The position numbers and the translations under genes were made by a program. From contig NZ_AONQ01000023.1 in assembly GCF_000342045.1 (NCBI RefSeq), positions 1 through 57,500 on the forward strand: DNA of 57,500 nucleotides, read 5' to 3'. Shown one piece after another: positions 1,024 to 40,761 of this stretch. The stretch comes from Paramagnetospirillum caucaseum (GTDB lineage Bacteria; Pseudomonadota; Alphaproteobacteria; Rhodospirillales; Magnetospirillaceae). Numbering within the stretch: the first letter of the stretch is position 1; each line of letters begins with the position of its first letter. The notes beneath the pieces are model-generated. The model did not search any database. It saw only the letters and a program-made list of their open reading frames with translations, and was not told the DNA's origin.

Positions 1024-1121
1024 ACCAAATTCCATCATGGGATTTGGTTAGGCCCAAGGGGCCGCGCGCCTTTCGGCGCGGGAGCCAAGGGCGCACAGCG
1101 CCCGCCCGGTGCTTGAGGGCG
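1024..1121 (+). repeat. Multi-hairpin 3' element, copy A
   Basis: Begins 14 nt after the stop of the YqeB-like gene. Consecutive inverted repeats: H0 ACCAAAT/ATTTGGT (1024-1030 with 1042-1048); P0 GGCCC-AAG-GGGCC (1051-1063); P1 CGCGCC-TTTC-GGCGCG (1065-1080); joiner AGCCAAG; P2 GGGCGC-ACA-GCGCCC (1089-1103); P3 CGCCC/GGGCG (1103-1107 with 1117-1121). Copies B, C and D have the same order with different but still complementary stems. No T-tract follows, so it is not a classic Rho-independent terminator. Confidence 0.85.
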
Positions 1122-1128
1122 GGAGAAA

Positions 1129-1539
1129 TCAAGGAATCGCGTAGGTGGCGGTGACGTGGGCGACCAGGTCGTCGCTGCCCGCCGCGATCAGCTCCACCGC
1201 CCCCATGGCGAGGCGGCGGCCCAGCTTGAGCAGGCTGGCCTCGGCGATGATGTCGCAGCGCTCGGCCTTGCGCAGGAAGCTGATGTTGAGGTTGCTGGTC
1301 ACCGCCATTTCCTGCTGGCCGATGGCCGACAGCACGGCGGCGTAGAGCGCCACGTCGGCCAGAGTCATCAGGGCCGGGCCGCAGACCACGTCCACCGGCC
1401 GGGTCAGGTGCGGCCCGAACGGCATGATCAGGCGGGCGGTGCCCTTGCCGATGCTCTCGGCCCGGATGGCCAGGTCGCGGGCCATGGGCAGCTTTTCCAT
1501 CAGCAGGGCGTTGAACTGTTCGGCGGAGATGGCGGACAT
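1129..1539 (-). CDS. PaaI-family thioesterase (hotdog fold)
   Basis: A 136-residue protein. The central helix and following strands (GPALMTLADVALYAAVLSAIG, then AVTSNLNISFLRKAE) have the pattern of the PaaI/YbgC hotdog thioesterase group that hydrolyses aryl- or acyl-CoA esters in the cytoplasm. The usual acidic residue of the hotdog helix appears as Asp in LADVA. It is divergent from a crotonase-family gene at 1610 with 70 bp between the starts, which suggests a shared acyl-CoA context. ATG 1539 is preceded by a purine-rich stretch (GGGAGCCCC). Substrate is not predictable. Confidence 0.8.
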   Translation of the reverse strand: MSAISAEQFNALLMEKLPMARDLAIRAESIGKGTARLIMPFGPHLTRPVDVVCGPALMTLADVALYAAVLSAIGQQEMAVTSNLNISFLRKAERCDIIAEASLLKLGRRLAMGAVELIAAGSDDLVAHVTATYAIP

Positions 1540-1609
1540 TGGGGCTCCCGGCTAAAGTGGTCGGACCAGTGTCCGGGATTTTCGCCGGCTATGGCAAGGG
1601 AGGTTTGGT

Positions 1610-2395
1610 ATGTCCGAGGGCGAACCCATCCTGATGCGCCGCGACGAGGCGGGCGTCGCCACCCTGACCCTGAACCGTCCGGCGGCGCGCAACGCCCTGT
1701 CGGTGGCCCTGATGACCGAGCTGGAGGCGGCGCTTTCGGCCATTGCCGCCGATGCGTCCGTCAAGGTGGTGGTGCTGGCCGCCAACGGCCCGGCCTTCTG
1801 CGCCGGGCACGATCTCAAGGAGATGCGGGGGCTGGCCGGCCGCGAGGCGGTGGCGGCGGTATTCGCCCTGTGCTCGCGGGTGATGACGGCCATCGTGCGG
1901 CTGCCCCAGCCGGTGGTCGCCAAGGTCCATGCCATGGCGACGGCGGCCGGCTGCCAGCTGGTGGCCAGCTGCGATCTGGCCTATGCCTCGACCGGGGCGA
2001 AATTCGCCACGCCGGGGGTCAATATCGGATTGTTCTGCTCCACCCCCATGGTGGCGCTGTCCCGGGTGGTGGGGCGCAAGCAGGCCATGGAGATGCTGCT
2101 GTCCGGAGTGCCGGTCAACGCCGCGACGGCGGAGAGCTGGGGGCTGATCAACCACGCGGTGGACCCCGAGGTGCTGGACGGCGAGGTGGCGGCCATGGCG
2201 CGGCTGATCGCCGGCAAGTCCTCCCACACCGTCAAGGTGGGCAAGGAGGCGTTCTACCGCCAGCTGGAGATGGGCCTGGACGACGCCTATGCCCATGCCT
2301 CGCGGGTGATGACCGAGAACATGCTGGCCATGGATGCGGCGGAAGGTATCGACGCCTTCCTGGAAAAGCGCCCGCCGGTATGGCGGGGCTGCTGA
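1610..2395 (+). CDS. Enoyl-CoA hydratase/isomerase-family (crotonase fold) protein, ECHDC3-like, catalytic glutamates absent
   Basis: A 261-residue crotonase-fold protein with a clear ribosome site (AAGGGAGG) before ATG 1610. N-terminal LTLNRPAARNALS and the oxyanion motif FCAGHDLKEMRGL are typical of the ECHDC3 subgroup. In true crotonases one catalytic Glu sits in the GGGxELA helix and the other in the PEIxIG strand. Here these are AAGCQLVAS and TPGVNIGLF, so the positions appear to be Gln and Gly. That argues against simple hydratase activity; the CoA-binding fold is probably kept. It is divergent from the PaaI thioesterase and followed by hairpin element B. Confidence 0.85.
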   Translation: MSEGEPILMRRDEAGVATLTLNRPAARNALSVALMTELEAALSAIAADASVKVVVLAANGPAFCAGHDLKEMRGLAGREAVAAVFALCSRVMTAIVRLPQPVVAKVHAMATAAGCQLVASCDLAYASTGAKFATPGVNIGLFCSTPMVALSRVVGRKQAMEMLLSGVPVNAATAESWGLINHAVDPEVLDGEVAAMARLIAGKSSHTVKVGKEAFYRQLEMGLDDAYAHASRVMTENMLAMDAAEGIDAFLEKRPPVWRGC

Positions 2396-2404
2396 TGCCT
2401 TATG

Positions 2405-2507
2405 CCAGCGGTCGAAACATTCGACCGCTGGACGGCCACAAGGTGGCCGCGCCGCTTATGCGGCGGAAGCCAAGCGACCCGGAGGGCGCGCCCGGCGACT
2501 GAGGGCG
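2405..2507 (+). repeat. Multi-hairpin 3' element, copy B
   Basis: Starts 10 nt after the crotonase stop codon. H0 is a perfect 12-bp stem (2405-2416 with 2420-2431, loop ACA) unrelated in sequence to H0 of copies A, C and D. P0 is GGCCAC-AAG-GTGGCC (2434-2448), P1 CGCCGC-TTAT-GCGGCG (2450-2465), then joiner AGCCAAG, P2 GCG(A)CCC-GGA-GGGCGC (2474-2489, one bulged A), P3 CGCCC/GGGCG (2489-2493 with 2503-2507). Relative to the other copies P0 has a compensated extra pair, which is strong evidence that structure is selected. Confidence 0.85.
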
Positions 2508-2581
2508 CTGGAAAGGTGTCAACCTTTCCAGCCGTTGGTATTTTGCCAAATCCCGATGAGTTCCGGCTTGTCGGGATTTGG
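2508..2581 (+). repeat. Two further hairpins trailing element copy B
   Basis: Immediately after P3 lies a perfect 10-bp hairpin CTGGAAAGGT-GTCA-ACCTTTCCAG (2508-2531), then an 11-bp inverted repeat CCAAATCCCGA/TCGGGATTTGG (2546-2556 with 2571-2581). The second has nearly the same stem as H0 of copy C (34794-34830), so these are interchangeable modules of the same element family. The array fills the space between two convergent genes and may act as a bidirectional transcript end. Confidence 0.7.
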
Positions 2582-2583
2582 GC

Positions 2584-2886
2584 CTACCTGAACTCGAACA
2601 GGGTCTGGAAGGCGGCGCGGTCCAGGGCTTCGCGCACTGGGCCGGCGGCGCCCTTGATCACCACCTTGGTCCCGGCGGCGTTGGCGCTGTCATAGATGTG
2701 GACGAACAGGCTCATGCCGGTGGAATCGATGAAGGTCAGCTCGCCCAGGCGGATTTCCCACTGGGCCTTGCCGGCCTTGTCCAGTTCGGCCAGGACCTTG
2801 GGAAACATCGAGGCCTCGGCGAAGGTCAGCCGTCCCTTGATGTCGATTTCCGCCCCGCCGCCGACCGCCTTGATGATGTACTGCAT
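2584..2886 (-). CDS. STAS-domain protein (anti-sigma-factor antagonist type)
   Basis: A 100-residue single-domain protein. ATG at 2886 follows a GAGGG ribosome site; the long open frame further upstream is a shadow of the chemoreceptor gene. It shows the STAS core: beta strand IDIKGRLTF, and the phospho-acceptor loop FIDSTGMSLFVHI, where the Ser of DSTGM is the residue phosphorylated in SpoIIAA/RsbV-type proteins. It starts 11 bp after the chemoreceptor gene on the same strand, so the pair is an operon. It probably acts as a cytoplasmic phospho-switch partner in signalling. No matching anti-sigma kinase is in the window. Confidence 0.85.
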   Translation of the reverse strand: MQYIIKAVGGGAEIDIKGRLTFAEASMFPKVLAELDKAGKAQWEIRLGELTFIDSTGMSLFVHIYDSANAAGTKVVIKGAAGPVREALDRAAFQTLFEFR

Positions 2887-2897
2887 GGCCCTCTGTC

Positions 2898-4946
2898 CTA
2901 GGATGCGCGGATTGAAGTGAGGAAGGTGTCGACCCGGTCGCGCAGCTTGGTGGCGCGCTCGGAGACGTCCTGCGCCGTCTGCAGCACTTCGGCCGAGGCG
3001 TGCTTGGTGTCGTCGGCCGCCTGATTGACGCCGGTGACGTTGGCGCTGATCTCGGTGGTGGCGCTGGCCACCTGCTGCACGTTGGCGGCGATCTCGCCGG
3101 TGGCGGCGTCCTGGCCGCGCACCGCCTCGGCGATGCCGGTGGCCACATTGTGCACCTGTTCGATCACCGTGGTGATGGAGGTGATGGCCGAGACGGCGTC
3201 GCCGGTGACCCGCTGGACGGTGGAAATCTGCCCGGCAATCTCCTCGGTGGCCTTGGCGGTCTGGTTGGCCAGATGCTTGACCTCGTTGGCGACCACGGCG
3301 AAGCCCTTGCCCGCCTCGCCGGCCCGCGCCGCCTCGATGGTGGCGTTCAAGGCCAGCAGGTTGGTCTGGGCCGCGATGTCGTTGATCAGCGCCACCACGG
3401 CGCCGATCTTGTCCACCGCCGAGGCCAGGCCGTCGATCAGCTGGGTGGTGCGCCGCGCCTCGGCCGAGGCCTCCTCGCTGATGCGCACCGAATCCTGGAC
3501 CTTGAGGCTGATGTCCTCGCCCGAATGGGCCAACTGCTCGACGGAGCCGGCGGCGGTGCGCATGTTGACGGCGGTTTCCTCGATGCCGGCGGCGACGGCC
3601 GCCGCCTGGGCCGAGGCGTCCTCCGCCGTGGAGGACAGCGAGCGCGAGGTGGCTTCCAGTTCGGTGGCGGTGGAAGCCATGCCGGCCAGGGCGTCGGACA
3701 CCTCCTCGTTGAACTCGCGCAGCAGGTTGTCGATCACCCGGGCGCGCTTGTCCTTGGTCCATTCGGCCTCGCGCCGCTCCTCGTCCAACTGGTCGGCGCG
3801 GATCAGGCCTTCCTTGAACACCTCGACGGCGCGGGCCATGGCGCCGATCTCGTCCTGGCGGTCCAGGCCGTTGATGGGCACGGTCTTGTCGCCCTCGGCC
3901 AGCTTGGTCATGTCGACGGTCATCTCGGCCAGCGGGCGGGTGATGCCGCGGGCGATGACCCAGATCAGGATGACGCCCAGCGACAGGACGGCGCCGGTGG
4001 TCGCCAGATAGGCGTACAGGGCGCTGAGCGTCGCGTCGTGGCCCTTTTCCGCCATGGTGACCAGGGCGGTGGAGGCCTGGTCCTCCACCTGCTTCAGCAG
4101 GTCGATCTTCTTGGTGATGGTGTCAAACCACACCGGCGCCTCGATGCCGCCCAGGTCGTTGGTGAAGGGGGCGTCCAGCGCCACGGCGCGCATGCGGTCC
4201 ACCTCCTTGACCGCCGGGTCGGCCATGGCCTTCTCGAAGGCCTGGCGCAACTCGGGCTCGGCGTTCTTGGCGAAGGTATCGAAGAACACGTCCTGGCGGG
4301 CGATCAGCTGGGTGAAGCTGCGGTGCAGGGGTGGCTCGAACTTCTTGGCGCCGAAGCCGCCGCTGGCGGTGGCGCGCTCCTGCCCCGCCCGCTCCTTGCC
4401 CTGCAGCAACTGGACATAGGCGATGATCGCCTTGGTGACGCGGACGTCGCGGCTGACCACCGCCATTTCCTCGATCACCGCCAGTTGCCGGGCGATGGCG
4501 GCGGTGTAGTAGCCGGTGGCCTCGCCCAGGGGAATGGACAGGCCGGTGATGGCGGCGCGCTTGTCGGCCAGCCCCTTCATGGCGGAATCGGCGGCGTCCA
4601 GCTTGGTCTTGAATCCCGTGCCGTAATCGGTGGCGGGGAAGCGCCCGAGGGCCGCGTTCAGCGCCGCCAGCTTGTCGTCGGTCAGCTTGCGCTGCTCGGG
4701 CAGGCGGTCCTTGAACTTTTCGCCCTTGCTGCCGATGAAGCCGGCCGAGGTGCCGCGTTCCTTCTGCAGCTCATGGACCAGGGCGCTGATGGCCGGAGCG
4801 AGCCGGGCCAGTTCCTCTACCTGTTCCATCTCGTCGGCCTGCCGGTTCTTTTCGGACAGGGCCAGGCCGGAATAGACGACGACCGCCACCAGCGGAATGA
4901 TCAGCGCCAGAGCAAGCCTGACCGCGATCTTGAGATTGTTCAGCAT
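2898..4946 (-). CDS. Methyl-accepting chemotaxis protein with nitrate/nitrite-sensing (NIT) domain
   Basis: A 682-residue transmembrane chemoreceptor. Start taken at ATG 4946 ([15 protein letters not shown]), preceded by GAGG; a 24-residue longer frame lacks such a site. Order: first membrane helix (about 6-28), periplasmic helical region with the NIT signature [17 protein letters not shown] near residue 60, second membrane helix at about 305-330, HAMP linker, then the cytoplasmic coiled coil with the signalling tip [31 protein letters not shown] domains are proposed to bind nitrate or nitrite, which would suit denitrification-related taxis; the ligand is inferred. No C-terminal receptor pentapeptide for CheR docking is seen. 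Co-transcribed with the STAS gene. Confidence 0.92.
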
Positions 4947-5115
4947 GGGAGCCTCATGGGCGTTCGAGCGTGGACTCGGGAACAGCCGTAAATATGCAAT
5001 TGGACAATTGGGAGGCATGCCGAATTGGCGCCTCGCCCCTGTATGATATGGCGAAGGATTGTGACGGCCAATCCATAAATATCGGTTGAGGCTATTGGTT
5101 ACAAAATGTCAGGAA

Positions 5116-5133
5116 AGGTAAGCAATGTTACCT
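5116..5133 (-). terminator. Hairpin downstream of soxYZ, possible terminator
   Basis: AGGTAA (5116-5121) pairs with TTACCT (5128-5133), loop GCAATG. On the minus strand it lies 20 nt past the soxZ stop and is followed by TTTCC, a weak U-tract. The surrounding 4947-5152 gap is AT-rich and also has two CAATTG blocks (4997-5002, 5005-5010), which could belong to the chemoreceptor promoter region. Confidence 0.4.
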
Positions 5134-5152
5134 ATAATTAGATTGTGATCAC

Positions 5153-5482
5153 CTAGTCGACAAGGATGTCGTGGACATATTCGAAAATCTCGCCGTTCTC
5201 GTCGAACCAGGTCAGCTTGATCTTGCCGCTGGCCGAGGCCACCGCGAAGAAGCTGGAGAACGGATTGGCCGATACCGCCTGGTGCCAGTCGGCGCTGATC
5301 ACCGGCTCGCCGTTCCAGGTGCAGGTGAAGCGGGTGACGATGTGCCGGGGGATGGTCCGGCCGGCGGCATCCTTGCGCAGGCCGGTTTCCATGTCGTGGC
5401 TGAGCTGGGTCTTGATCTCGATGATCTCGCCCTTCTTCGCCTTGGGCGGGATGCGCACCTTGACGCGATCGGAATTGGCCAT
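5153..5482 (-). CDS. soxZ: Thiosulfate oxidation carrier subunit SoxZ
   Basis: A 109-residue protein beginning MANSDRVKVRIP at ATG 5482, with GAGG upstream. The immunoglobulin-like sequence, including KKGEIIEIKTQLSHDMETG, IPRHIVTRFTCTWNGE and a SSFFAVASASGKIKLTWFD segment, is characteristic of SoxZ. SoxZ forms the periplasmic heterodimer with SoxY that carries sulfur intermediates as a thioadduct. It lies 5 bp after soxY. No soxAX, soxB or soxCD is present in the window, so SoxYZ may work with enzymes encoded elsewhere or as a general sulfur carrier. Confidence 0.93.
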   Translation of the reverse strand: MANSDRVKVRIPPKAKKGEIIEIKTQLSHDMETGLRKDAAGRTIPRHIVTRFTCTWNGEPVISADWHQAVSANPFSSFFAVASASGKIKLTWFDENGEIFEYVHDILVD

Positions 5483-5487
5483 GTCCC

Positions 5488-5943
5488 TCAGCCTCCGCAG
5501 CCGCCGATGGTGACCGTGACCTCCTGGCGGGCGATCCACACCTCGCCGTCCGAGGTCACGGCGTAGGCCCGCACCGTCTGGGTCTTGGCCAGACGCATGC
5601 GGAAGCTGATCTCGGCCCGGCCCGAGCGGGGCGTCAGGTGCCAGGACGACACCACCGGATAGGGATTGCCTTCGGCCAGGACGTGGATGGCCTTGACGTG
5701 GTCGGCGGCGGTCATGGGAGAGTCCACCGACACGGTGATGGGCTCGGAAGCGCCGCTGGCCGCCACGTCGCGCATCTTCAGCCTGATCTTGCCGTCCTTG
5801 GCCTTGAACGGCCCCATCAGCGCGCGGGCCAGGGCGTCGGCCTCCTGCGCGGCGGCGGGCCGCGGCGCGGTCAAGCCCATCGTGGCGGCGGCGACCGTTC
5901 CTGCCAGCACGGCGCGGCGGTTCAGTTTCGCGGCTGTGTCCAC
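5488..5943 (-). CDS. soxY: Thiosulfate oxidation carrier protein SoxY
   Basis: A 151-residue protein. The GTG start at 5943 is supported by a very strong ribosome site (GGGGAGGAGAGG). The N-terminus has a twin-arginine-type signal (LNRRAVLAG followed by an Ala-rich stretch ending AAAQ), fitting export as the SoxYZ complex. The C-terminus ends IGGCGG, the swinging-arm motif whose cysteine carries the sulfur substrate. The mature part matches the SoxY fold (ITVSVDSPMTAADHVK, RAYAVTSDGEVW). Part of a yeeE-soxY-soxZ operon; an AT-rich palindrome lies 70-90 bp upstream. Confidence 0.94.
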   Translation of the reverse strand: MDTAAKLNRRAVLAGTVAAATMGLTAPRPAAAQEADALARALMGPFKAKDGKIRLKMRDVAASGASEPITVSVDSPMTAADHVKAIHVLAEGNPYPVVSSWHLTPRSGRAEISFRMRLAKTQTVRAYAVTSDGEVWIARQEVTVTIGGCGG

Positions 5944-6012
5944 GGACCTCTCCTCCCCGGAAATCTTTTTTCTTTCATGGTAGCGGAGGCGGGCAAGGGG
6001 GCGCAACCCATT

Positions 6013-6032
6013 ATATAATGATATTATTATAT
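6013..6032. promoter_or_regulatory. AT-rich palindrome upstream of soxY
   Basis: ATATAATGATATTATTATAT is nearly self-complementary (18 of 20 positions) in otherwise GC-rich DNA. It sits directly at the end of the yeeE-like gene and 70 bp before the soxY start. This could be an operator for a sulfur-responsive ArsR-type repressor (SoxR/BigR/SqrR families bind AT-rich dyads) or an internal promoter. No such regulator gene is in the window; the assignment is inference. Confidence 0.45.
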
Positions 6033-7130
6033 TCAGCGCCGCAGCAGGGCGCGCAGGCCGGGAAGCAGGCCGCCCTCCTCCAGGCTGCGCAGGCCCAGGA
6101 TGCCGCCCAGGATGATGGCGGCCAGGGCCAGGAACGAGGTGAGCGACAGGGTGGACAGGCCGCTCAGCCCCTGGCCGATGGTGCAGCCCATGGCCAGCAC
6201 GCCGCCGGTGCCCATCAGGGCGCCGCCGGCCAGATGGCGGAGCATGTCGTCGGCATCGGCGAAGCCTTCCACCGCGAAGCTTCCCGACAGGCGGGCCGCC
6301 AGGAACGATCCGGCGATGACGCCGCCGACCGCGGCGATACCGAAATTGATGGTCGATCCGGTATAGGTCATCAGGTAGATCAGCCCGTCGCCCATGGGGG
6401 CGATGAACGAGAACGAGGCCAACGCCACCGGGTCGAATTCGTCGGCGCCCAGGATGCCGGTGACCGCCCAGCCGGCCGGGATGCACAGGCCGATCACCAA
6501 TGCGCCGGCGATCTTGCCGCGGGCGGCGCGGAAATCGGCATCGCGCAGGCACCAGGCCAGGGCACCGCCGGCCAGGGCCAGCACGCACAGCAGGCGGGCG
6601 GCGGCCTCGGGCAGGCCGGTCCCGGCCAGCAGGGCGGGCAGGCCGGAATCGGCGGCGCCCAGCCGGGCGGGGGAGAGATTGGTGGCCTGCTCGAGGGCGA
6701 TGCGCTCCATGGCCAGCAGGCCCTTCAGGGTCATGGTGGCGAACAGCCCCACCACCAGCATCACCACCAGCGACTTGAGATTGCCGCCGCCCAGCCGCAC
6801 CAGGGTCTTGGCCCCGCAGCCGCCGGACAGGGTCATGCCGTAGCCGAACATCAGCCCGCCCAGGATGGCCCCGGCCCAGGGGATGGAGGGGCCGAGATAG
6901 ATGGACTTGCCGAGGTTCACCAGCCCGGCGGCCTGCAGCGCCTGCGATCCCAGCAGGGCCACCGCCATGGCCAGCACCCAGGCGCGCAGCCGCCGCCGGT
7001 CGCCCATCAACACCATGTCGGACAGCGCGCCCATGGTGCAGAATTCGCTGGCCCGCGCCGCCCAGCCGAACACCACGCCCACAGCGAAGGTGGCGGAACC
7101 GACGATGGTGGTCAGCGGGATTTCGGACAA
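6033..7130 (-). CDS. YeeE/YedE-family sulfur-compound transporter
   Basis: A 365-residue integral membrane protein with about ten hydrophobic helices. It contains the two internally related cysteine-containing motifs of the YeeE/YedE (TsuA-like) family: YGMTLSGGCGAKTLVRLGGG near residues 97-116, and MGTGGVLAMGCTIGQGLSGL near 305-325, plus ASEFCTMGALSD near the N-terminus. TsuA homologues import thiosulfate through conserved Cys residues. The neighbouring soxYZ genes and divergent tusA support a job in moving thiosulfate or another sulfane-sulfur compound across the inner membrane. ATG 7130; the divergent region to tusA is 142 bp. Confidence 0.88.
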   Translation of the reverse strand: MSEIPLTTIVGSATFAVGVVFGWAARASEFCTMGALSDMVLMGDRRRLRAWVLAMAVALLGSQALQAAGLVNLGKSIYLGPSIPWAGAILGGLMFGYGMTLSGGCGAKTLVRLGGGNLKSLVVMLVVGLFATMTLKGLLAMERIALEQATNLSPARLGAADSGLPALLAGTGLPEAAARLLCVLALAGGALAWCLRDADFRAARGKIAGALVIGLCIPAGWAVTGILGADEFDPVALASFSFIAPMGDGLIYLMTYTGSTINFGIAAVGGVIAGSFLAARLSGSFAVEGFADADDMLRHLAGGALMGTGGVLAMGCTIGQGLSGLSTLSLTSFLALAAIILGGILGLRSLEEGGLLPGLRALLRR

Positions 7131-7201
7131 GGGGGCTCTCCGTTCAGCTCCGTCGAGGCTAGCACCGGGGAGCCGGCGGCATCAATGGACTGTGATGGGC
7201 C

Positions 7202-7247
7202 TTAATATTAGTGTAGCCTTATATCAATGACGGCGGCCCGGCCGCCG
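7202..7247. promoter_or_regulatory. Divergent yeeE/tusA control region: AT-rich box and leader hairpin
   Basis: The 142-bp space between the divergent sulfur genes has an AT-rich patch (7202-7228, containing TTAATATTAG and CTTATATCAA), reminiscent of the AT-rich dyad near soxY. A perfect hairpin CGGCGGC-CCG-GCCGCCG (7231-7247) lies in the probable tusA 5' leader just before the GAGGGAGG ribosome site. Shared control of the two transcripts is likely; the protein involved is unknown. Confidence 0.4.
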
Positions 7248-7272
7248 CAACGGATGAGAGGGAGGACGAGGG

Positions 7273-7500: not shown

Positions 7501-7509
7501 GGCGCCGAA

Positions 7510-33634: not shown

Positions 33635-34218
33635 GGGTAGAGGTGCTCCAACCGCCAGCCGTCCTCCCCCCGCACATAGGCGAAGCGGTCGTGCAGGCGG
33701 AACGGCCGGTCGTGCCAGAACTCGATGCGCCGGGGCGCCAGCCGGAAGCCCGACCAGTGGGGCGGGCGCGGCACCTTGCCCAGGCCGAATTTGGCGGCGA
33801 ACTCGCCGACCCGCTTCTCCAGTTCGAACCGGCCGGTGAGCGGCCGCGACTGGATGGAAGCCCAGGCGCCGATCTGGCTGGCCCGCGCCCGGGTGGCGAA
33901 GTAGGAATCCGCCTCTTCGTCCGAGACCCGGGTGATGGCGCCCTCGGCACGGATCTGGCGCCGCAGGCTCTTCCAGTGGATGCACAAGGCGGCGTTGGGG
34001 TTGGCCGCCAGGTCCTGGCCCTTGCGGCTTTCCAGGTTGGTGAAGAACACGAAGCCGGCCGCGTCGGCGCCCTTCAGCAGCACCATGCGCACGCTGGGCC
34101 TTCCTTCCGCGTCGGCGGTGGCCAGGGCCATGGCGTTGGGGTCGTTGGGCTCGGCCTTCTCGGCCTCTTCCATCCACTTGTGGAACAGGACCAGGGGATC
34201 GGCTTCGGGTGTGGACAT
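33631..34218 (-). CDS. pdxH: Pyridoxamine 5'-phosphate oxidase
   Basis: A 195-residue FMN enzyme making pyridoxal 5'-phosphate (EC 1.4.3.5). Motifs: [27 protein letters not shown] for FMN and substrate binding, [15 protein letters not shown], and the C-terminal family signature region [14 protein letters not shown] followed by WRLEHLYP. Start ATG 34218 ([16 protein letters not shown]); the longer frame lacks support. The stop overlaps the CDF start (ATGA), so the two are translationally coupled. Confidence 0.95.
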
Positions 34219-34318
34219 TCTTTCACCGGCGGGTGTTGACGCGTCGCCCTCAAAATGCCCAGATTCAGGGGCATATGGTAGACGTTTCGTCGCATACCCC
34301 CTTTTCAGCGAGAGCCCC

Positions 34319-34792
34319 ATGCGCCCCCTTGCTCCCAAGATCGTTTCCGCCCTCCTCGCCCTGTCGCTGCTGGGGGCCTGCGAGAACGCCAAGGTCGGCC
34401 AGACCACCGGCGCCATCCTGGGCGGCGTCGGCGGCGGCCTGCTGGGCTCGCAGTTCGGCGGCGGTACCGGCCGGCTGTTGATGACCGCCCTGGGCGCGGC
34501 GCTGGGCGCCTATGCCGGCTCGGAACTGGGCAAGACCCTGGACAAGGCCGACAAGGAAGAGGTGATGAAGGCCGAGGAGAAGGCCGCCGACGCCCCGGTG
34601 GGGGAGACCGTCGCCTGGAGCAATCCCCAATCGGGCAAGTCCGGCACGGTGACGCCGGTGAGCGAAACCAGGGATGCCCAGGGGCGCACCTGCCGCGACT
34701 TCAAGTCGACCATCCTGGTGGACGGCAAGGAAGAGGTGGTCAACGGCACCGCCTGCAAGCAACCCGACGGTTCGTGGAGCGCGGTGAACTAA
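34319..34792 (+). CDS. Glycine-zipper surface lipoprotein (17-kDa antigen-like)
   Basis: A 157-residue lipoprotein: signal sequence with lipobox LLGAC (Cys21), then a glycine-zipper segment ([25 protein letters not shown], about 30-55, and [14 protein letters not shown]), as in Rickettsia 17-kDa antigen and RT0821/Lpp0805 proteins. The C-terminal part ([40 protein letters not shown]) is the small outer-membrane domain typical of that family, with two Cys possibly forming a disulfide. Likely anchored in the outer membrane. Followed after 1 nt by hairpin element C. Confidence 0.85.
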
Positions 34793-34793
34793 T

Positions 34794-34928
34794 ACCAAAT
34801 CCCAATGAGCCGAACTCATCGGGATTTGGTCAGGCCCAAGGGGCCGCGCGGCTTCTGCCGCGGAAGGCAAGGGTTTCGGAGAAACCCGCCCGCCGCTGAG
34901 GGCGCCGCTGATCGGTTTCGATCAGCGG
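34794..34928 (+). repeat. Multi-hairpin 3' element, copy C
   Basis: Starts 2 nt after the lipoprotein stop. H0 ACCAAATCCC/GGGATTTGGT (34794-34803 with 34821-34830); P0 GGCCC-AAG-GGGCC (34833-34845); P1 CGCGGC-TTCT-GCCGCG (34847-34862); P2 GGGTTTC-GGA-GAAACCC (34871-34887); P3 CGCCC/GGGCG (34887-34891 with 34900-34904); trailing perfect 10-bp hairpin CCGCTGATCG-GTTT-CGATCAGCGG (34905-34928). The P2 stem differs from copies A and D at most positions yet pairs perfectly. Confidence 0.88.
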
Positions 34929-35024
34929 GATATGGTATAAGTCACGCTTCCTTAACCGGAAAGACGGCATGGTCACGGGTTGGCGGTGCCGCCCATTTTC
35001 CATTGCAGCCGGGATGACGACGCG

Positions 35025-35939
35025 GTGAAGGACCCTTATCTGGTGCTGGGCGTGGCCCGCACCGCTTCCGACGACGAGATCAAGAAGACCTACCGTGCCC
35101 TGGCGCGCGAGCTTCATCCCGACCTCAATCCCGGCGATTCCAAGGCTGAGTCGCGGTTCAAGGACATCTCCGCCGCCTACGACTTCCTGTCGGACCCGGC
35201 CAAGCGCGCCCAGTTCGATTCCGGCGAGATCGACGCCTCGGGCTCGCCGAAGCGCGGCGCCTGGCGTTCGCGCTCCGGCCCCCGGGCGGGAGCGGGCGAC
35301 CCCCGGGCGGGCTTCGGCGGCTTCGGCGACAACGTGGACGACATCCTGGCCGAGCTGTTCCGCCGCAAGCAGAAGGGCCAGTCCCAGGCGCACGCCAAGG
35401 CCAGGACAAGGGGTGGCGATGTGCGCCATACCCTGACCGTGCCGTTCCAGGAGGCGGCGGCAGGCGGCACCAAGCGGGTGACCCTGATGTCGGGCCGCAC
35501 CGTCGAGGTGCGCATTCCGCCGGGCAGTACCGATGGCCAGACGCTGCGCCTCAAGGGCCAGGGCCACGGCGCCGACGACGGCGCGCTGCCGGGCGATGCC
35601 TTCATCGAACTGAAGGTGGAGGAACACCCCTATTTCAAGCGCCGCGACCTCGACGTGCTGCTCGACCTGCCGGTGACGGTGCAAGAAGCGGTGATGGGCG
35701 GCAAGGTGCCGGTGCCGACCATCGACGGCAAGGTGATGGTGACGGTGCCGCCCGGCTCCAACACCGGCGCGGTGCTGCGCCTCAAGGGCAAGGGCATCGC
35801 CGGTCCCCACGGGACGCGCGGCGACCAGCTGGTCACCCTGTCGGTGGTGCTGCCCGACGATGCCGATTTCCGCCAGCTGGTGGAGAAATGGGGGCCGCGC
35901 CACGGCTACGACCCCCGCGCCAAGGCGGGGATCGTCTGA
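35025..35939 (+). CDS. DnaJ C-terminal-domain co-chaperone (CbpA-like)
   Basis: A 304-residue protein. GTG 35025 gives the normal J-domain start (KDPYLVLGVARTASDDEIKK); the frame is open further upstream without a better start. J-domain residues 1-65 contain LHPDLNPG, the HPD motif that stimulates DnaK. A Gly/Arg-rich linker with DILAELFRRK follows, then two beta-rich substrate-binding domains (about 130-290) without the zinc-finger repeats of DnaJ. This is the CbpA/DjlA-type layout of a nucleoid- or stress-linked DnaK partner. Confidence 0.88.
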   Translation: MKDPYLVLGVARTASDDEIKKTYRALARELHPDLNPGDSKAESRFKDISAAYDFLSDPAKRAQFDSGEIDASGSPKRGAWRSRSGPRAGAGDPRAGFGGFGDNVDDILAELFRRKQKGQSQAHAKARTRGGDVRHTLTVPFQEAAAGGTKRVTLMSGRTVEVRIPPGSTDGQTLRLKGQGHGADDGALPGDAFIELKVEEHPYFKRRDLDVLLDLPVTVQEAVMGGKVPVPTIDGKVMVTVPPGSNTGAVLRLKGKGIAGPHGTRGDQLVTLSVVLPDDADFRQLVEKWGPRHGYDPRAKAGIV

Positions 35940-35961
35940 GAGCCGGTGCTTGAAAAGGCTT

Positions 35962-36067
35962 GTCATCCCGAGGCACGAGCCGAGGGATCTCCGCCTGGAA
36001 TGCTGGTCCCAAGCCGGGAAAACCGGATCAGAACGAGATTCCTCCGCCCGATGGTCGTCGGAATGAC
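35962..36067 (+). repeat. GTCATCC-ended dispersed repeat, copy 1
   Basis: A 106-bp element beginning GTCATCCCGAGGCACGAG and ending CGTCGGAATGAC, so its ends are inverted repeats. The left third (GAGGGATCTCCGCC) and right third (ACGAGATTCCTCCGCCCG) match the reverse complement of the copy at 38097-38199. Related GTCATCC...GGATGAC repeats are common in many genomes. It lies between the dnaJ-like gene and chaN ends. Confidence 0.7.
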
Positions 36068-36099
36068 GGATCAAATGAAAGATCGGGCGTTATATCCTT

Positions 36100-37101
36100 C
36101 TACTTCCCGGCCTCCTCCTTCTTCTTCATGTGCTTTTCCAGCAGGGCGCACTGGTCGTCCCGCCGGGCGCGGCCGGTGAACCAGACGATGTCGAAGGGCG
36201 GCGTTCCGGTGCCGAAGGCTTCGCCATAGGCGGCGGGTCTGGTCTTGCCGGCCTCCACCTCCAGGAAGGCGATGGCCAGCATGGGAATGCCGGGCACCAT
36301 GGCGTGCAGGCGGGCGGGGACGCCCCGGTCGGCGCGGGCGTGGACGGCGCCGGCGATCAGCACCGCCGGCCCGGTTTCGGGCCGTGACGCCTGATCGGCC
36401 ATCACCTCGGCCATGGCGGCGTCGCGGGCGCGCTGGACGCGGACCATGGGGGCCACCGCCTTTTCCGGCAGCATGTTGCAATGGCCCTCGCGGATGTCGG
36501 CGGCCAGGGTCTTCTCCTCGGCGGCGGGCAAAGGCTGGTCCAGGCCGAAGCGGCCATCCGTTTCGGCGCCCTGCTCGCCCCTGGCGATGCGCCGGGTCAG
36601 GTCCTGGGGCAGGTTGGCGGCCTTGATCTCGCCGCGCGCCGCCAGCGCCGCCTCGACGATGGGGCGGTACAGCGCCCAGTCAGGCCAGCCGCGCTTTTCC
36701 CAGTCCAGCGCCGCGCCCAGGCCGGCGGAATCGCCGACGCCCTGGTCGATGGCGGCCTGCCGGTCGGTGTCCACCATCTCCAGCGCCACCACCGGCCGGC
36801 GGCCGGCGGCGGCCAACTCCCGCACCACCCAGGCCTGCAGGGCGTGGTGGTCGGCATTGTCGTGGGTCTCGCCCAGCAGCACGATGCCGGCTCCCCGCGC
36901 CGCCTCCGCCACGTCCTCGGGGCTCAGCCATCTGGACGAGGCGGGGGCCCAGATCCTGCCGGCCAGCGGATGGCCGCCGGGCAGGGTGGGTGGCGGTGGC
37001 GGTTCGGCCCAGGCGGGCGCCGCCCAGGCCAGGGCGAGAACGGCGAATCGAACGAGCGTTCGGGTCATCTGGTCAAGGCGGAGGGGTTGCGCTATGGTCA
37101 T
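36100..37101 (-). CDS. ChaN-family heme-binding/iron-regulated protein
   Basis: A 333-residue exported protein. Start at ATG 37101, with AGAAGGG upstream; signal peptide follows (TLVRFAVLALAWAAPAWAE). Family motifs: GIVLLGETHDNADHHALQ near residue 85, VVALEMVDTDRQAAID, and the late VLIAGAVHARADRGVPARL. ChaN of Campylobacter binds heme as a dimer at the outer membrane; no lipobox is seen here, so it may be soluble in the periplasm. C-terminus is lysine-rich. Divergent from the TAXI binding-protein gene (43 bp). Confidence 0.82.
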   Translation of the reverse strand: MTIAQPLRLDQMTRTLVRFAVLALAWAAPAWAEPPPPPTLPGGHPLAGRIWAPASSRWLSPEDVAEAARGAGIVLLGETHDNADHHALQAWVVRELAAAGRRPVVALEMVDTDRQAAIDQGVGDSAGLGAALDWEKRGWPDWALYRPIVEAALAARGEIKAANLPQDLTRRIARGEQGAETDGRFGLDQPLPAAEEKTLAADIREGHCNMLPEKAVAPMVRVQRARDAAMAEVMADQASRPETGPAVLIAGAVHARADRGVPARLHAMVPGIPMLAIAFLEVEAGKTRPAAYGEAFGTGTPPFDIVWFTGRARRDDQCALLEKHMKKKEEAGK

Positions 37102-37144
37102 ACCAAACCCTTCTAATAGAACAGCCAATACCTTGGGAGGCATC

Positions 37145-38083
37145 ATGAAGAGGGTCATCGTGGGGGCCGTGCTGGCCTCGTTCCTGGCGTTGCCGGCCTT
37201 GGCCGCCGACCAGTTCCTCAACATTCTCACCGGCGGCACCAGCGGCGTCTACTACCCGCTGGGCAACGCCCTGTCGTCCATCTACGGCAAGACCCTGCCC
37301 GGTGCCCGGGTCACCGTCCAGGCCACCAAGGCCTCGGTGGAGAATCTGAACCTGCTGCAGGCGGGACGGGGCGAACTGGCCTTCACCCTGGGCGATTCCC
37401 TGACCCAGGCCTGGGAGGGCGTCGAGGAGGCCGGCTACAAGACGCCGCTGAAGAAGCTGCGGACCATGGCGGCCATCTATCCCAACTACATCCAGATCGT
37501 CGCCACCGCCGATTCGGGCATCAAGACCCTGGCCGACCTCAAGGGCAAGCGGGTGTCGGTGGGAGCCCCCAAATCGGGCACCGAGCTTAACGCGCGGGCC
37601 ATCTTCAAGGCGGCGGGGCTGTCCTATGCCGATATGAAGGTGCAGTACCTGCCGTTTGGGGAATCGGTGGAGCTGATGAAGAACAAGCAGCTGGACGCCA
37701 CCCTGCAATCGGCCGGGCTGGGCGTTTCCTCGCTGCGCGACCTCGCCACCAACGACGACATCGTCATCGTGCCGATTCCGGTCGAGACCGTCGCCAAGAC
37801 CGGCGATTCGGCCTACATCGCCTCGGCGGTGCCGGCCAACACCTATCGCGGCCAGACCGCCGACGTGCCCACCGCGGCGGTGCGCAACTTCCTGGTCACC
37901 CACGAGGGCGTGCCCGCCGATCTGGTCTACGGCATGACCAAGTCCATGTTCGCCAACATGCCCGACATGCTGGCCGCCCATTCGGCGGCGCGCGACATCG
38001 TGCCGGAGGCCGCGGCCAAATCGCCCATCCCGCTGCATCCCGGCGCGGAGAAGTACTACCGCGAGGCCGGCTTGCTGAAGTGA
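37145..38083 (+). CDS. TAXI-family TRAP transporter solute-binding protein
   Basis: A 312-residue periplasmic protein with signal peptide (VIVGAVLASFLALPALA). It starts with NILTGGTSGVYYPLGNALSSIY, the hallmark of TAXI binding proteins, and contains LADLKGKRVSVGAPKSGTELNAR and KNKQLDATLQSAGLG. It delivers a substrate to the fused TRAP permease encoded at 38228, from which it is separated only by a GTCATCC repeat. Known TAXI ligands include glutamate-type acids and alpha-ketoglutarate; substrate here is undetermined. Confidence 0.92.
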   Translation: MKRVIVGAVLASFLALPALAADQFLNILTGGTSGVYYPLGNALSSIYGKTLPGARVTVQATKASVENLNLLQAGRGELAFTLGDSLTQAWEGVEEAGYKTPLKKLRTMAAIYPNYIQIVATADSGIKTLADLKGKRVSVGAPKSGTELNARAIFKAAGLSYADMKVQYLPFGESVELMKNKQLDATLQSAGLGVSSLRDLATNDDIVIVPIPVETVAKTGDSAYIASAVPANTYRGQTADVPTAAVRNFLVTHEGVPADLVYGMTKSMFANMPDMLAAHSAARDIVPEAAAKSPIPLHPGAEKYYREAGLLK

Positions 38084-38096
38084 GGTCGCCACACTC

Positions 38097-38199
38097 GTCA
38101 TCCTGACGACCATCGGGAGGAGGGATCTCGTTTCGACGCGCCGTGTCCCATGCGGATGCGGTGGTGCCGGCGGAGATTCCTCGCCATGCTCGGGATGAC
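38097..38199 (-). repeat. GTCATCC-ended dispersed repeat, copy 2 (inverted)
   Basis: 103 bp running from GTCATCCTGACGACCATCGG to TGCTCGGGATGAC. Its reverse complement lines up with 35962-36067 at both ends, the middle being divergent. Together the copies bracket the chaN/TAXI pair in opposite orientation. The repeat splits the binding-protein gene from its permease gene. Confidence 0.7.
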
Positions 38200-38227
38200 A
38201 CTAGTCTGACGGTGAAGGGGGATGGCG

Positions 38228-40285
38228 ATGAGCCAGAACAACGGAACCGGTATCGATCCCTCCGAGATCGACACCAAGGGTGAGGTGTTCGGCCACGGCA
38301 TCGAGTCCAGGCCGATCTTCTGGATCGCCATCGTCTTCTCCACCTTCCAGATCGTCACGGCGGCCTATTCGCCGCTGTCGTCGCTGCCGGTGCGGTCCAT
38401 CCATGTGGGTTTCCTGCTGCTGATGGTCTTCGCTCTCTACGCCACCATGGACCGGGGCAATCCGGTCAAAGCCGCCGCCACCTGGATTCTGGGAGGGGTG
38501 TCCTTCGTCCTGTCGCTCTACCATCTGGTCTACGAGGGCGATCTGGTGCAGCGCTCGGGCGATCCCTCCGCCACCGATCTGGTGGTGGGCACCATCATGG
38601 TGGCCATGGTGTTCGAGGCTGCGCGGCGCCTGATGGGGTGGGCCCTGCCGCTGCTCTGCCTGGGCTTCGTCGCCTATGTGGCGTTCGGCGAGCATCTGCC
38701 GGCGCCGCTCGGCCATCGCGGCTACGGCTTCGACCAGATCGTCAACCAGTACTTCCTGGGGACCGAGGGCATCTTCGGCATCCCCTGCTATGTCTCGTCC
38801 ACCTATATCTTCCTGTTCATCCTGTTCGGCAGCTTCCTCGAACAGGCGGGGATGATCCGCCTGTTCACCGACGTGGCGCTGGGCACGGTGGGCCATTCCC
38901 AGGGTGGGCCGGCCAAGGTGGCGGTCATCTCCTCGGGCCTGATGGGCACCATCAACGGTTCGGGGGTGGCCAACGTAGTGACCACCGGCCAGTTCACCAT
39001 CCCTCTGATGAAGAGATTCGGCTACCGCCCGGAATTCGCGGCGGCCGTCGAGGCCACCTCGTCCATGGGCGGGCAGATCATGCCGCCGGTGATGGGGGCG
39101 GTGGCCTTCATCATGGCCGAAACCCTGAACGTCAGCTATTTCGAGGTATGCAAGGCCGCCGCCGTGCCCGCCATCCTCTATTACCTGACCGCCTTCTGGA
39201 TGGTTCACCTCGAGGCGGGCAAGCGCAAGCTGCTCGGCCTGCCCAAGGAGGATTGCCCCAGCGCCTGGGGGGCCTTCAAGCGGCAATGGTTCCTGGTGGT
39301 GCCGCTGGCGGTGCTGGTCTATCTGCTGCTGTCGGGCTACACGCCCATGTTCTCGGGCACCATCGGGCTGGCCGGAACCGCCGTGGTGATCCTGGGCAAT
39401 CCGCTGTCGGCCCGCCTGCCCGGCCTGGCCTACCGCTGCCTGTTCTGGGTGCTGCTGGCCCTGGTGTCGTCGTCGTTCTTCACCTACGGCATCGATGCCG
39501 TGGTGGCGGTGCTCGCCCTGCTGGTGGCGGCCAACGCCCTGTTCAAGGGGCATCACGCCACATTGCGGCTGTGCGTCAACTCGCTGAGCGAGGGGGCCCG
39601 GTCGGCGGTGCCGGTGGGCGTCGCCTGCGCCCTGGTGGGAGTCATCATCGGCACCATGACGCTGACCGGCGTGGCGGGTACCGTCACCCAGGGTATCGTC
39701 TCCCTGGCCGGCGACAGCCTGTTCCTGACCCTGGTGCTCACCATGCTGGCCTGTCTGGTACTGGGCATGGGCATTCCCACCATTCCCAACTACATCATCA
39801 CCTCGTCGCTGGTGGCGCCCATCCTGCTGAAGATGGGGGTACCGCTGATCGTCTCGCACATGTTCGTGTTCTATTTCGGCATCATGGCCGACCTGACGCC
39901 GCCGGTCGCCCTGGCCGCCTTCGCCGCCGCCACGGTGGCGCGCTGCTCGTTCATGAAGACCGGTTTCCATGCGGTGCGTATCGCCGTCGCCGGTTTCGTC
40001 GTCCCCTACATGGCGGTCTACGATCACGCGCTGATGCTGCAGACCGGCGACTGGTCCGATGCGGCCTATGTGATCGCCAAGGCGGTGCTGGCCATCTTCC
40101 TGTGGGGGGCGGCGGCCATCGGCCATCTGTTCGTGCCCCTGAGTTGGGCCGAGCGCCTGCTGGCCACCGCCTCGGCCTTTTCCCTGGTGGTGGCGCTGCC
40201 CGTCACCGACGAGGCGGGTGCGGCGGGCGCCGCCGTGTTCGTGGGCTGGCACTGGCTCCGCTCGCGCAAGGCGGCCATGGCGTGA
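38228..40285 (+). CDS. TRAP transporter permease, fused 4TM/12TM (TAXI-type)
   Basis: About 685 residues, with some 18 hydrophobic helices. ATG 38228 is 7 nt from the AAGGGGG site; ATG 38222 is an alternative. It has the large-subunit signature of TAXI-TRAP fusions: GTINGSGVANVVTTGQFTIPLMKRFGY and SSMGGQIMPPVMGAVAFIMAE in the first half, and MGIPTIPNYIITSSLVAPILLKMG plus ADLTPPVALAAFAAATVA in the second. It drives sodium- or proton-coupled uptake of the ligand caught by the 37145 protein. It overlaps the next gene (GTGA). Confidence 0.93.
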   Translation: MSQNNGTGIDPSEIDTKGEVFGHGIESRPIFWIAIVFSTFQIVTAAYSPLSSLPVRSIHVGFLLLMVFALYATMDRGNPVKAAATWILGGVSFVLSLYHLVYEGDLVQRSGDPSATDLVVGTIMVAMVFEAARRLMGWALPLLCLGFVAYVAFGEHLPAPLGHRGYGFDQIVNQYFLGTEGIFGIPCYVSSTYIFLFILFGSFLEQAGMIRLFTDVALGTVGHSQGGPAKVAVISSGLMGTINGSGVANVVTTGQFTIPLMKRFGYRPEFAAAVEATSSMGGQIMPPVMGAVAFIMAETLNVSYFEVCKAAAVPAILYYLTAFWMVHLEAGKRKLLGLPKEDCPSAWGAFKRQWFLVVPLAVLVYLLLSGYTPMFSGTIGLAGTAVVILGNPLSARLPGLAYRCLFWVLLALVSSSFFTYGIDAVVAVLALLVAANALFKGHHATLRLCVNSLSEGARSAVPVGVACALVGVIIGTMTLTGVAGTVTQGIVSLAGDSLFLTLVLTMLACLVLGMGIPTIPNYIITSSLVAPILLKMGVPLIVSHMFVFYFGIMADLTPPVALAAFAAATVARCSFMKTGFHAVRIAVAGFVVPYMAVYDHALMLQTGDWSDAAYVIAKAVLAIFLWGAAAIGHLFVPLSWAERLLATASAFSLVVALPVTDEAGAAGAAVFVGWHWLRSRKAAMA

Positions 40286-40638
40286 GCGGATTGTGTGCCG
40301 TCGCGGCGGCCGGCCTGCTGCTGCTGACCCCGTCGGATCACTTCACCCTGGCCTGGACCCATTCGGTGGAGAAGGTGGAGTGGCGCGAGGACTGGCAGGC
40401 CGTCTCCGGCCGCCTGATCCTCCGCCAGGCCTCGGTCCTGGGCAGCGCCGCCGGCATGGAGCCGCCGCCCCAGGCGGTGCTGAGGGACGGACGCTGGGTC
40501 TGGAACCCGGGGATCGTGATGGAGGAGATCGTCCTGGCCCGCTCGGATTTCACCGCCGACTGGCGGCTGTGCGTCGCGGGGCGCTGCCGGGACCTGGACA
40601 AGGAAAAGGGGCAGACCCGGTTGCGGGCCTGCCCCTGA
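40282..40638 (+). CDS. DUF1850 protein associated with TAXI-TRAP transporters
   Basis: A 118-residue protein starting at GTG 40282, whose GTGA overlaps the permease stop. Short hydrophobic N-terminus (GLCAVAAAGLLLL), then the DUF1850 pattern FTLAWTHSVEKVEWREDWQ, with GMEPPPQAVLRDGRWVW and a C-terminal pair of Cys (RLCVAGRCRDL). DUF1850 genes regularly accompany TAXI-TRAP permeases; the protein probably sits at the membrane or periplasm as an accessory. Coupled translation supports that. Confidence 0.82.
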   Translation: MSGLCAVAAAGLLLLTPSDHFTLAWTHSVEKVEWREDWQAVSGRLILRQASVLGSAAGMEPPPQAVLRDGRWVWNPGIVMEEIVLARSDFTADWRLCVAGRCRDLDKEKGQTRLRACP

Positions 40639-40649
40639 AGTTCTGTTTG

Positions 40650-40761
40650 CCCCTCAGTCGCCGGGCGGGTCGTCTGCGCCGACCCTTGGCTTTCGCGGCC
40701 TAAGCCGCGCGGCCCCTGGGGCCTAGCCAAGCCTCGATGAGGTTCGCTCCTCGAGGCTTGG
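40650..40761 (-). repeat. Multi-hairpin 3' element, copy D
   Basis: On the minus strand it starts 11 nt after the dctM stop. H0 CCAAGCCTCGA/TCGAGGCTTGG (40761-40751 with 40737-40727); P0 GGCCC-CAG-GGGCC (40723-40711); P1 CGCGGC-TTAG-GCCGCG (40709-40694); joiner AGCCAAG; P2 GGGTCG-(7 nt)-CGACCC (40685-40667); P3 near 40668-40650 is slightly imperfect. Same order and orientation relative to the upstream gene as copies A-C. Confidence 0.85.

What the first reader, a model, noticed from the sequence alone, without database searches (positions are those of the whole stretch)
1024..40761. Modular multi-hairpin 3' element: four copies with covarying stems
Elements at 1024-1121, 2405-2507, 34794-34928 and 40761-40650 (minus) share the order H0-P0-P1-AGCCAAG-P2-P3. 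Stems covary: P2 is GGGCGC/GCGCCC, GCGCCC-type with one bulge, GGGTTTC/GAAACCC, and GGGTCG/CGACCC. P1 is CGCGCC, CGCCGC, CGCGGC and CGCGGC with matching partners. P0 keeps an AAG/CAG loop and one copy has a compensated extra pair. Each begins 2-15 nt after a stop codon on the same strand. No T-tract follows. This points to selection on structure, as RNA or as a mobile palindromic unit, and I do not recognise the family.
Basis: seen in the sequence. Interest (0 to 1): 0.85.

Follow-up and report, generated by a model that had tools for sequence, protein, structure and literature searches.

The report
Jumping DNA carrying a folded RNA
Four copies of a small mobile DNA element, present in dozens of copies in some alphaproteobacterial genomes, sit beside stop codons and carry a knotted RNA-like fold that evolution has kept by compensating mutations; the libraries searched hold no description of it.

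Summary
Four copies share P0-P1-GCCAAG-P2-P3, and the stems covary far beyond controls.

(1) GCC of the linker pairs with GGC in the P3 loop, and the pair flips to GGC/GCC in one subtype: an H-type pseudoknot with P2 in its loop.

(2) The complete unit is a 138-160 bp miniature transposon with ends TACCAA...TTGGTA, each inside a hairpin, and a 3-bp target duplication TNA. Of 22 core-bearing stretches with exact ends, 19 have identical TNA flanks. Of 15 called core-less, one does, itself a member with a changed linker. Every TNA reads TAA or TGA on one strand, which explains the place behind stop codons. Copy e3 is complete (TAA/TAA).

(3) The family is large: 47 hits at E<=1e-5 here (73 at E<=0.01), 42 of 60 genomes (own included), patchy over Alphaproteobacteria. 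Some orthologous sites are empty.

No Rfam match. It is neither a RAYT-driven REP nor a CIR. The transposase was not found. Best reading: a mobile element with a conserved RNA domain acting in 3' regions, like ERIC or NEMIS but with a pseudoknot. RNA function is inferred.

The parts
1025..1120 (+). copy e1: H0 1025-1047, P0 1051-1063, P1 1065-1080, AGCCAAG 1083-1089, P2 1089-1103, P3 1104-1120; 5' end CACCAA (1023-1028), no recognisable 3' terminal repeat
   Evidence: stop TGA at 1007-1009
2403..2540 (+). copy e2, full length: 5' end TGCCAGCGG, H0 2404-2431, P0 2434-2448 (extra pair), P1 2450-2465, AGCCAAG 2468-2474, P2 2474-2489, P3 2490-2506, 3' hairpin H4 2507-2532, 3' end CCGTTGGTA 2532-2540; flanks TTA (2400-2402) / TTT (2541-2543), a target duplication with one mismatch
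   Evidence: orthologous site holds only 11-12 bp in two relatives
34793..34937 (+). copy e3, complete 145-bp miniature transposon of subtype B (GGC/GCC pseudoknot): H0 34793-34830, P0 34833-34845, P1 34847-34862, AGGCAAG 34865-34871, P2 34871-34887, P3 34888-34903, H4 34905-34928, 3' end GGGATATGGTA 34927-34937
   Evidence: three near-identical copies elsewhere in the genome (L005-L007); its orthologous site was not searched
34790..34792 (+). left target-site duplication TAA, also the stop codon of the upstream frame 33932-34792
   Evidence: one search takes this frame as the gene, preferred an overlapping frame on the other strand
34938..34940 (+). right target-site duplication TAA
40649..40761 (-). 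copy e4: H0 40727-40761, P0 40711-40723, P1 40694-40709, AGCCAAG 40685-40691, P2 40667-40685, P3 40649-40666; no recognisable 3' terminal repeat
   Evidence: orthologous site holds only 5-22 bp in three relatives
2544..2581 (+). solitary palindrome TGCCAAATCCC...GGGATTTGG resembling H0 without a core, directly behind e2

Best explanation
It is a miniature non-autonomous transposon (MITE-like) superfamily of Alphaproteobacteria whose inside is a conserved structured RNA. Shown by sequence: a complete unit is 138-160 bp, begins TACCAA and ends TTGGTA or close to it (each end inside its own hairpin, H0 and H4), and duplicates a 3-bp TNA target. TNA is always a TAA or TGA stop on one strand, so an insertion that duplicates a stop codon leaves the gene intact; that explains the place just behind genes. 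Shown by covariation: the core is a hairpin P1, then an H-type pseudoknot (stem 1 GCC:GGC, stem 2 CCC:GGG) with the freely varying hairpin P2 in its first loop, usually with a further hairpin P0 before it. Inferred: a transposase supplied in trans moves it, and the strand read together with the upstream gene folds as RNA in the 3' region of the transcript, where it is recognised or blocks decay, so that the insertion is tolerated or useful. That selection acts on one strand is suggested by G-T outnumbering A-C in P2 and by an about 2:1 bias for the sense orientation.
For: Terminal repeats and target duplication: of 22 core-bearing stretches with exact TACCAA/TTGGTA ends among fetched loci, 19 have identical 3-bp flanks, all TNA. 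Of 15 called core-less, 14 have different flanks; the one match, L416, carries P0, P1 and a changed linker in its listed sequence. A looser detection gave 26 identical of 51, all 26 TNA. Genome G024 has 25 exact-ended matches against 1 for the reversed pattern. Empty sites: e4 in G009, G013 and G016, e2 in G005 and G009, flanks 79-95% identical except one at 74%. Structure: 61 copies, 98.8% of cells paired, 199 double-change cells; slid controls 38-52% and 17-49 cells. Pseudoknot: 140 GCC/GGC, 14 GGC/GCC, 5 mismatched of 159 distinct; both states occur in the G024 family. Strand: G-T 23 against A-C 8 in P2 (p 0.011, or 0.029 against composition). Orientation between co-directional genes 46 sense to 23 antisense (p 0.008). 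None of 88 elements lies inside a called gene.
Against: No autonomous partner was found: none seen in the own genome, none in 36 genomes, and none of 26 DUF4096 matches has such a pair of ends, two of them lying at contig ends. The end patterns are not enriched everywhere: the exact TACCAA/TTGGTA pattern has 0 matches in the own genome against 2 for the reversed control, and controls exceed matches in many of the 60 genomes; the one-mismatch pattern has 17 sites against 16 control sites. Many copies, e1 and e4 included, lack the 3' end and clear duplications. Tandem arrays are not explained by cut-and-paste. No clean empty site was obtained for e1 (94 bp in G009, 334 bp in G005). Stops hit in sense against antisense are 17:9 (loose) and 11:8 (strict), so the bias is modest; the two parts of the 46:23 count give p 0.04 and 0.11 alone. 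One covariation measure (further pair types) is reached by 10 of 500 shuffles. The G-T excess rests on 31 cells from related sequences, with 6 of 152 P2 left out; G-T is also tolerated in single-stranded DNA. No expression data were seen.
Confidence: 0.72

Rival explanations
1. Purely selfish DNA: the folded core is what the mobilising enzyme (or a replication or recombination step) recognises as a hairpin in single-stranded or cruciform DNA; no RNA function exists and the 3' position only reflects the TNA target and selection against promoter insertions.
For: Convergent spacers outnumber divergent ones 18:2 in the own genome and 21:10 in named genomes (p 0.07); both orientations occur; presence/absence between relatives; tandem arrays of locus-specific units.
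Against: The ends already carry the inverted repeats and the target duplication, so an ordinary transposase would not be expected to need a 58-nt internal pseudoknot (inference); G-T outnumbers A-C in P2, which strand-symmetric DNA selection does not predict; many copies without the 3' end keep paired core stems.
Confidence: 0.25
2. A cis-regulatory RNA of operons: the GGG of TGAGGG is the Shine-Dalgarno sequence of the next gene and is hidden in P3, so the element controls translation of the downstream gene.
For: Coding starts pile up exactly 9 nt behind TGAGG[GA] (9 starts; 13 at 8-10 nt) among 255 distinct elements, against 0-4 at each other offset up to 31.
Against: Only 13 of 255 elements have a coding start at 8-10 nt; many lie between convergent genes with no start downstream.
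Confidence: 0.15
3. REP elements spread by RAYT (Y1) transposases.
For: Palindromic, high copy, extragenic, arranged in arrays.
Against: A Y1_Tnp (PF01797) match at E<=1e-5 is found in only 3 of 17 genomes of the genus although all 17 carry the element.
Confidence: 0.03
4. Intrinsic terminators or mere terminator hairpins.
For: Strong hairpins behind stop codons.
Against: No T run follows P3 in the window; base counts after TGAGG[GA] are A-rich at positions 3-9; behind e4 a separate hairpin with TTTT stands further downstream and its start is conserved in relatives without the element.
Confidence: 0.05

Closest known systems
ERIC/IRU (enterobacteria) and Correia/NEMIS (Neisseria) miniature elements
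   Same: About 100-200 bp, non-autonomous, terminal inverted repeats, mostly intergenic, many copies, transcripts fold; ERIC at the 3' end of Yersinia genes alters transcript level through an RNase E site, Correia/NEMIS transcripts are cut by RNase III (passages of PMC10969869 and PMC2229807).
   Different: [quoted passage not shown] Here separate hairpins and a covarying pseudoknot form the core, the target duplication is TNA, and the ends are TACCAA.
CIR (Caulobacter CcrM-associated intergenic repeats)
   Same: Alphaproteobacterial, about 110 bp, intergenic, RNA model with two arms joined by a linker (PMC2229807 section 7).
   Different: CIR carries a conserved GANTC; here GANTC occurs in 81 of 264 stretches of about element length and in 7 of 264 cores. 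No CIR sequence was at hand for direct comparison.
RIME, AB, C and Sm repeats of Rhizobium
   Same: Alphaproteobacterial intergenic repeats of unknown function with sequence and secondary-structure conservation (passages of PMC2573895).
   Different: Their sequences could not be compared here (the original RIME paper is not held); membership is open.
REP/BIME with RAYT
   Same: Extragenic palindromes in high copy number, composite arrays (abstract of PMC2817692).
   Different: That abstract calls RAYT obligately associated with REPs; a Y1_Tnp match occurs in only 3 of 17 genus genomes here.
MITEs of IS5-like (IS1031/ISL2) insertion sequences
   Same: 3-bp TNA target duplication (recalled from general knowledge; one paper seen in passages, PMC4482050, gives ANT for bacterial IS5).
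   Different: 26 IS5-like (DUF4096) matches in 8 of 10 genomes show no pair of TACCAA-type ends, so the parent is unknown.

Membership tests
MITE (general class) | short non-coding unit with terminal inverted repeats | tested here: met
   TACCAA...TTGGTA ends, 144-160 bp in the strict set; e2 and e3 in the window with near-matching ends
MITE (general class) | target-site duplication | tested here: met
   19 of 22 strict complete copies with identical TNA flanks against 1 of 15 called core-less (that one is a member); not visible in 3'-truncated copies
MITE (general class) | insertion polymorphism (empty sites) | tested here: met
   e4 empty in 3 relatives, e2 in 2; no clean empty site for e1; e3 not searched
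MITE (general class) | shared ends with an autonomous insertion sequence | tested here: inconclusive
   none found; the search covered only relatives, one transposase family and fixed end patterns
REP/RAYT | Y1 transposase (RAYT) in genomes with many copies | tested here: not met
   PF01797 in 3 of 17 genus genomes, element in all 17
CIR | conserved GANTC motif | tested here: not met
   81 of 264 stretches, 7 of 264 cores
RIME | sequence match to RIME1/RIME2 | not testable with these tools
   source paper not held; no RIME sequence at hand
Any Rfam 15 family | score above gathering threshold | tested here: not met
   window and 8 loci at gathering: no hit on the element; e2 and one Niveispirillum copy at permissive E-values: best E 0.8 and 0.12, all far below gathering
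ERIC/NEMIS-type RNA-folding MITEs | folding in transcripts alters mRNA stability | not testable with these tools
   needs transcript data

The most novel reading that the evidence does not exclude
A miniature transposon carries an active or protein-binding pseudoknotted RNA domain of a kind not yet described. It spreads a functional RNA module into the 3' ends of dozens of genes per genome across a bacterial class, with the stop-codon target as its way of doing no harm; the RNA might cut itself, be cut, or shield the upstream message.
Probability: 0.25. Interest if true: 0.85.

Novelty: new variant of a known kind. Interest (0 to 1): 0.66.

Why it matters
A family without an Rfam entry occurs in dozens of copies per genome in Magnetospirillum kin, and also in Azospirillum kin, Acetobacteraceae and some Sphingomonadales. 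It shows a mobile element whose target preference makes stop codons a safe harbour, and one with a covarying pseudoknot. That makes the old question whether such repeats act as RNA directly testable: many natural copies with compensated stems, plus empty sites in relatives, form a ready-made experiment. It would also help genome annotation and explain some contig breaks.

Tried and rejected
Rfam at gathering and permissive thresholds: nothing on the element. Alternative stem GGCT:AGCC around P0-P1: 71% of cells pair and no double changes; rejected for the GCC:GGC pseudoknot. REP/RAYT and an IS5-type parent: not supported. Terminator reading: rejected, see rivals. Plasmid collection, one Niveispirillum query: two Niveispirillum records, 13 places. 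Ten literature searches (listings of open PMC papers): no paper describing this family was recognised. Beyond listings I saw passages of PMC2573895, PMC4482050, PMC2267715, PMC2229807 (also its sections 4 and 7) and PMC10969869, and the abstract and outline of PMC2817692. Subscription journals and supplements are not covered. One search used a wrong core pattern and was replaced. One search includes badly placed ends (ordinary coding sequence caught by the loose pattern); one search is cleaner.

Limits and dropped rows. Genome searches score only a limited number of first-look candidates per genome (150 own; 79; 14; 18), so presence and copy numbers are lower bounds; the weakest of the 73 hits at E<=0.01 were not checked, and one R1 hit at E 3.2e-4 (L045) was judged a non-member. 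How many of the 299 genomes lie outside the class is not shown. Of 63 R1 hits, 37 were parsed and 27 aligned; 8 were dropped before the context count. Of 115 rows, 61 were chosen by hand; P1 rows were pre-selected as fully paired, and named loci were fetched with GCCAAG, GGC and TGAGGG fixed; P2 was not pre-selected. One search made 118 loci (L135-L252), 80 of them listed there; the context count used those 80, later scripts all. Unnamed and named genomes overlap (equal contig lengths: G001 with Terasakiella sp. PR1, G008 with VK2_bin-0414); scripts removed identical sequences. Gene context used a home-made codon-usage gene caller, and tandem copies count singly. Exact-ended stretches come from loci fetched partly for the core and partly by the end pattern, so they are no random sample.
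Full report
Observation. The four elements are real. A 32-nt core pattern finds exactly these four in the window with up to 3 mismatches and none in 100 shuffles. P3 alone and the H0 motif alone are not beyond chance there. Folding z-scores are -5.2, -7.8, -6.1 and -3.9. Rfam 15 sees only a tRNA in the whole window.

A genome-wide family. A 41-position model of P0-P1-GCCAAG (R1) built from the four gives 63 hits at E<=1 in the 4.86-Mb genome. A 78-position model (R2, 27 copies) gives 81 at E<=1, 73 at E<=0.01 and 47 at E<=1e-5, with 150 of 10,908 candidates scored. R2 hits 42 of 60 genomes searched as relatives, own genome included: all 17 of the genus and several other families of the order. 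A 58-position model (R3, 61 copies) hits 38 of 387 genomes of the class and 13 of 299 in a phylum-wide draw, all 13 in the same class (the list does not show how many of the 299 lie outside the class).

Fold. On 27 own copies, 92.8% of cells pair; slid controls reach at most 48%. RNAalifold proposed GCC (linker) with GGC (just behind the CCC of P3), a pairing that crosses P3. On 61 diverse copies with this pseudoknot written in, 98.8% of cells pair and 199 cells carry changes on both sides; slid controls reach 52% and 49 cells; one measure, further pair types, is reached by 10 of 500 shuffles. Over the loci then held, 140 distinct combinations are GCC/GGC, 14 GGC/GCC and 5 mismatched (Fisher p 2e-15, which ignores relatedness). 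The double change occurs within the G024 transposon family (most of L341-L353 against L354) and in another genome, G413 (L371), so it arose or was exchanged more than once. Layout: stem 1 5' (GCC), AA, hairpin P2, G, stem 2 5' (CCC), stem 1 3' (GGC), loop GNNTGA, stem 2 3' (GGG): an H-type pseudoknot with P2 in its first loop. P2 takes very many paired sequences; linker and loop TGA hardly change, though in the named loci they were partly fixed by the search pattern.

Strand. Among 146 distinct P2 hairpins (6 of 152 left out for too few pairs), mismatches that are wobble on the element strand (G-T, 23) outnumber those that would be wobble on the other strand (A-C, 8); other mismatches 18. Two-sided p is 0.011, or 0.029 against the re-paired composition. 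This suggests that the element strand itself folds, as RNA or as one strand of DNA.

Mobility. e3 is 145 bp, TACCAAATCCC...GGGATATGGTA, flanked by TAA/TAA; e2 is 138 bp with TTA/TTT flanks. In G024 the pattern TACCAA...TTGGTA has 25 matches against 1 for the reversed control, and the 14 regions fetched from it carry related, mostly near-identical elements. Elsewhere that exact pattern is often no commoner than its control, and it has no match in the own genome, whose copies end in TGGTA or other variants. Among fetched stretches with exact ends and readable flanks, 19 of 22 with the core have identical 3-bp flanks, all TNA (TAA, TGA, TCA, TTA); of 15 called core-less, 1 has, and that one (L416) shows P0, P1 and a changed linker in its listed sequence. 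Outside the genus, TNA duplications with such ends occur in Azospirillum RU38E (L162, L189) and an Acetobacteraceae genome (L212), and with a GACCAA start in Falsiroseomonas stagni (L151). Some orthologous spacers are empty: e4 in G016, G013 and G009 (5-22 bp between the flanks), e2 in G009 and G005 (11-12 bp). G013 holds 55 bp at the e2 site, and G010 and G016 hold other palindromic repeats at such spots. For e1 no clean empty site was seen; in G013 the place in front of the same downstream gene holds two tandem copies with a different, again paired, P2.

Context. Around 55 own-genome loci the order is gene+ element gene+ 21, convergent 18, antisense 9, divergent 2, incomplete 5. Around 88 elements in 80 named loci it is 25, 21, 14, 10, incomplete 18, and none lies inside a called gene. 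Sense against antisense between co-directional genes is 46:23 (p 0.008; 21:9 and 25:14 alone give 0.04 and 0.11). In 13 of 255 distinct elements a coding start follows TGAGG[GA] at 8-10 nt, 9 of them at exactly 9 nt: there the P3 3' strand may serve as ribosome-binding site.

Arrays. In several genomes identical or nearly identical units of about 87-134 bp stand in tandem; units are alike within a locus and differ between loci, sometimes preceded by a lone P3. Simple cut-and-paste transposition does not explain this; local duplication is the likely reason.

What drives it. A Y1 transposase match (PF01797) is found in 3 of 17 genus genomes. No element with such ends and room for a gene was seen among the listed sites of the own genome or of 36 genomes, judged by eye from site lists. 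26 DUF4096 transposase matches in 8 of 10 genomes show no pair of such ends. The mobilising enzyme is therefore unknown; an IS5-like enzyme is a lead from the TNA duplication (recalled; PMC4482050, passages, gives ANT for bacterial IS5).

Comparison. ERIC and NEMIS are the closest in way of working: MITEs whose transcripts fold and change mRNA decay (PMC2229807 and PMC10969869, passages and two sections). CIR and RIME are the closest in lineage: CIR's GANTC is not conserved here (81 of 264), and RIME could not be compared. A survey of stem-loop repeat families (PMC2267715, passages) lists ERIC, NEMIS and others; I did not see this element in those passages. None of the passages seen mentions a pseudoknot. 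I file it as a new variant of RNA-folding MITEs.

What is shown and what is not. Shown: family, fold by covariation, ends, target duplication, some empty sites, intergenic place. Suggested: strand-specific selection. Inferred: a transposase in trans, and a role of the folded RNA at transcript 3' ends. Not found: the transposase, or any expression evidence.

Noticed in passing
window 2544-2581: A solitary H0-like palindrome without a core stands directly behind e2.
   Followed up: partly
L285, L256 and L264 (orthologous sites of e4 and e2 in G010 and G016): Other palindromic repeats (GTCATCCTGAGC...CTCAGGGTGACA type) occupy the spacer where the own genome has this element.
   Followed up: no
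L123-L128, L130, L131, L140, L171, L187, L188, L207, L348, L367, L368: Tandem copies, alike within a locus; in G008 several contigs end near a copy, so the element may break assemblies.
   Followed up: partly
L029, L038, L043: P1 is extended by roughly 45 nt that can form two further hairpins, a modular insertion kept inside a closed P1 stem.
   Followed up: no
L021, L033, L137, L152, L161, L167, L206, L230, L248, L337: The TGAGGG of P3 sits 9 nt (8 in L033) before a coding start, as if it were the ribosome-binding site of the next gene.
   Followed up: partly
window around 40600-40640 (minus strand): A hairpin followed by TTTT, whose start is conserved in relatives without e4, is probably the terminator of the neighbouring convergent genes.
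   Followed up: partly
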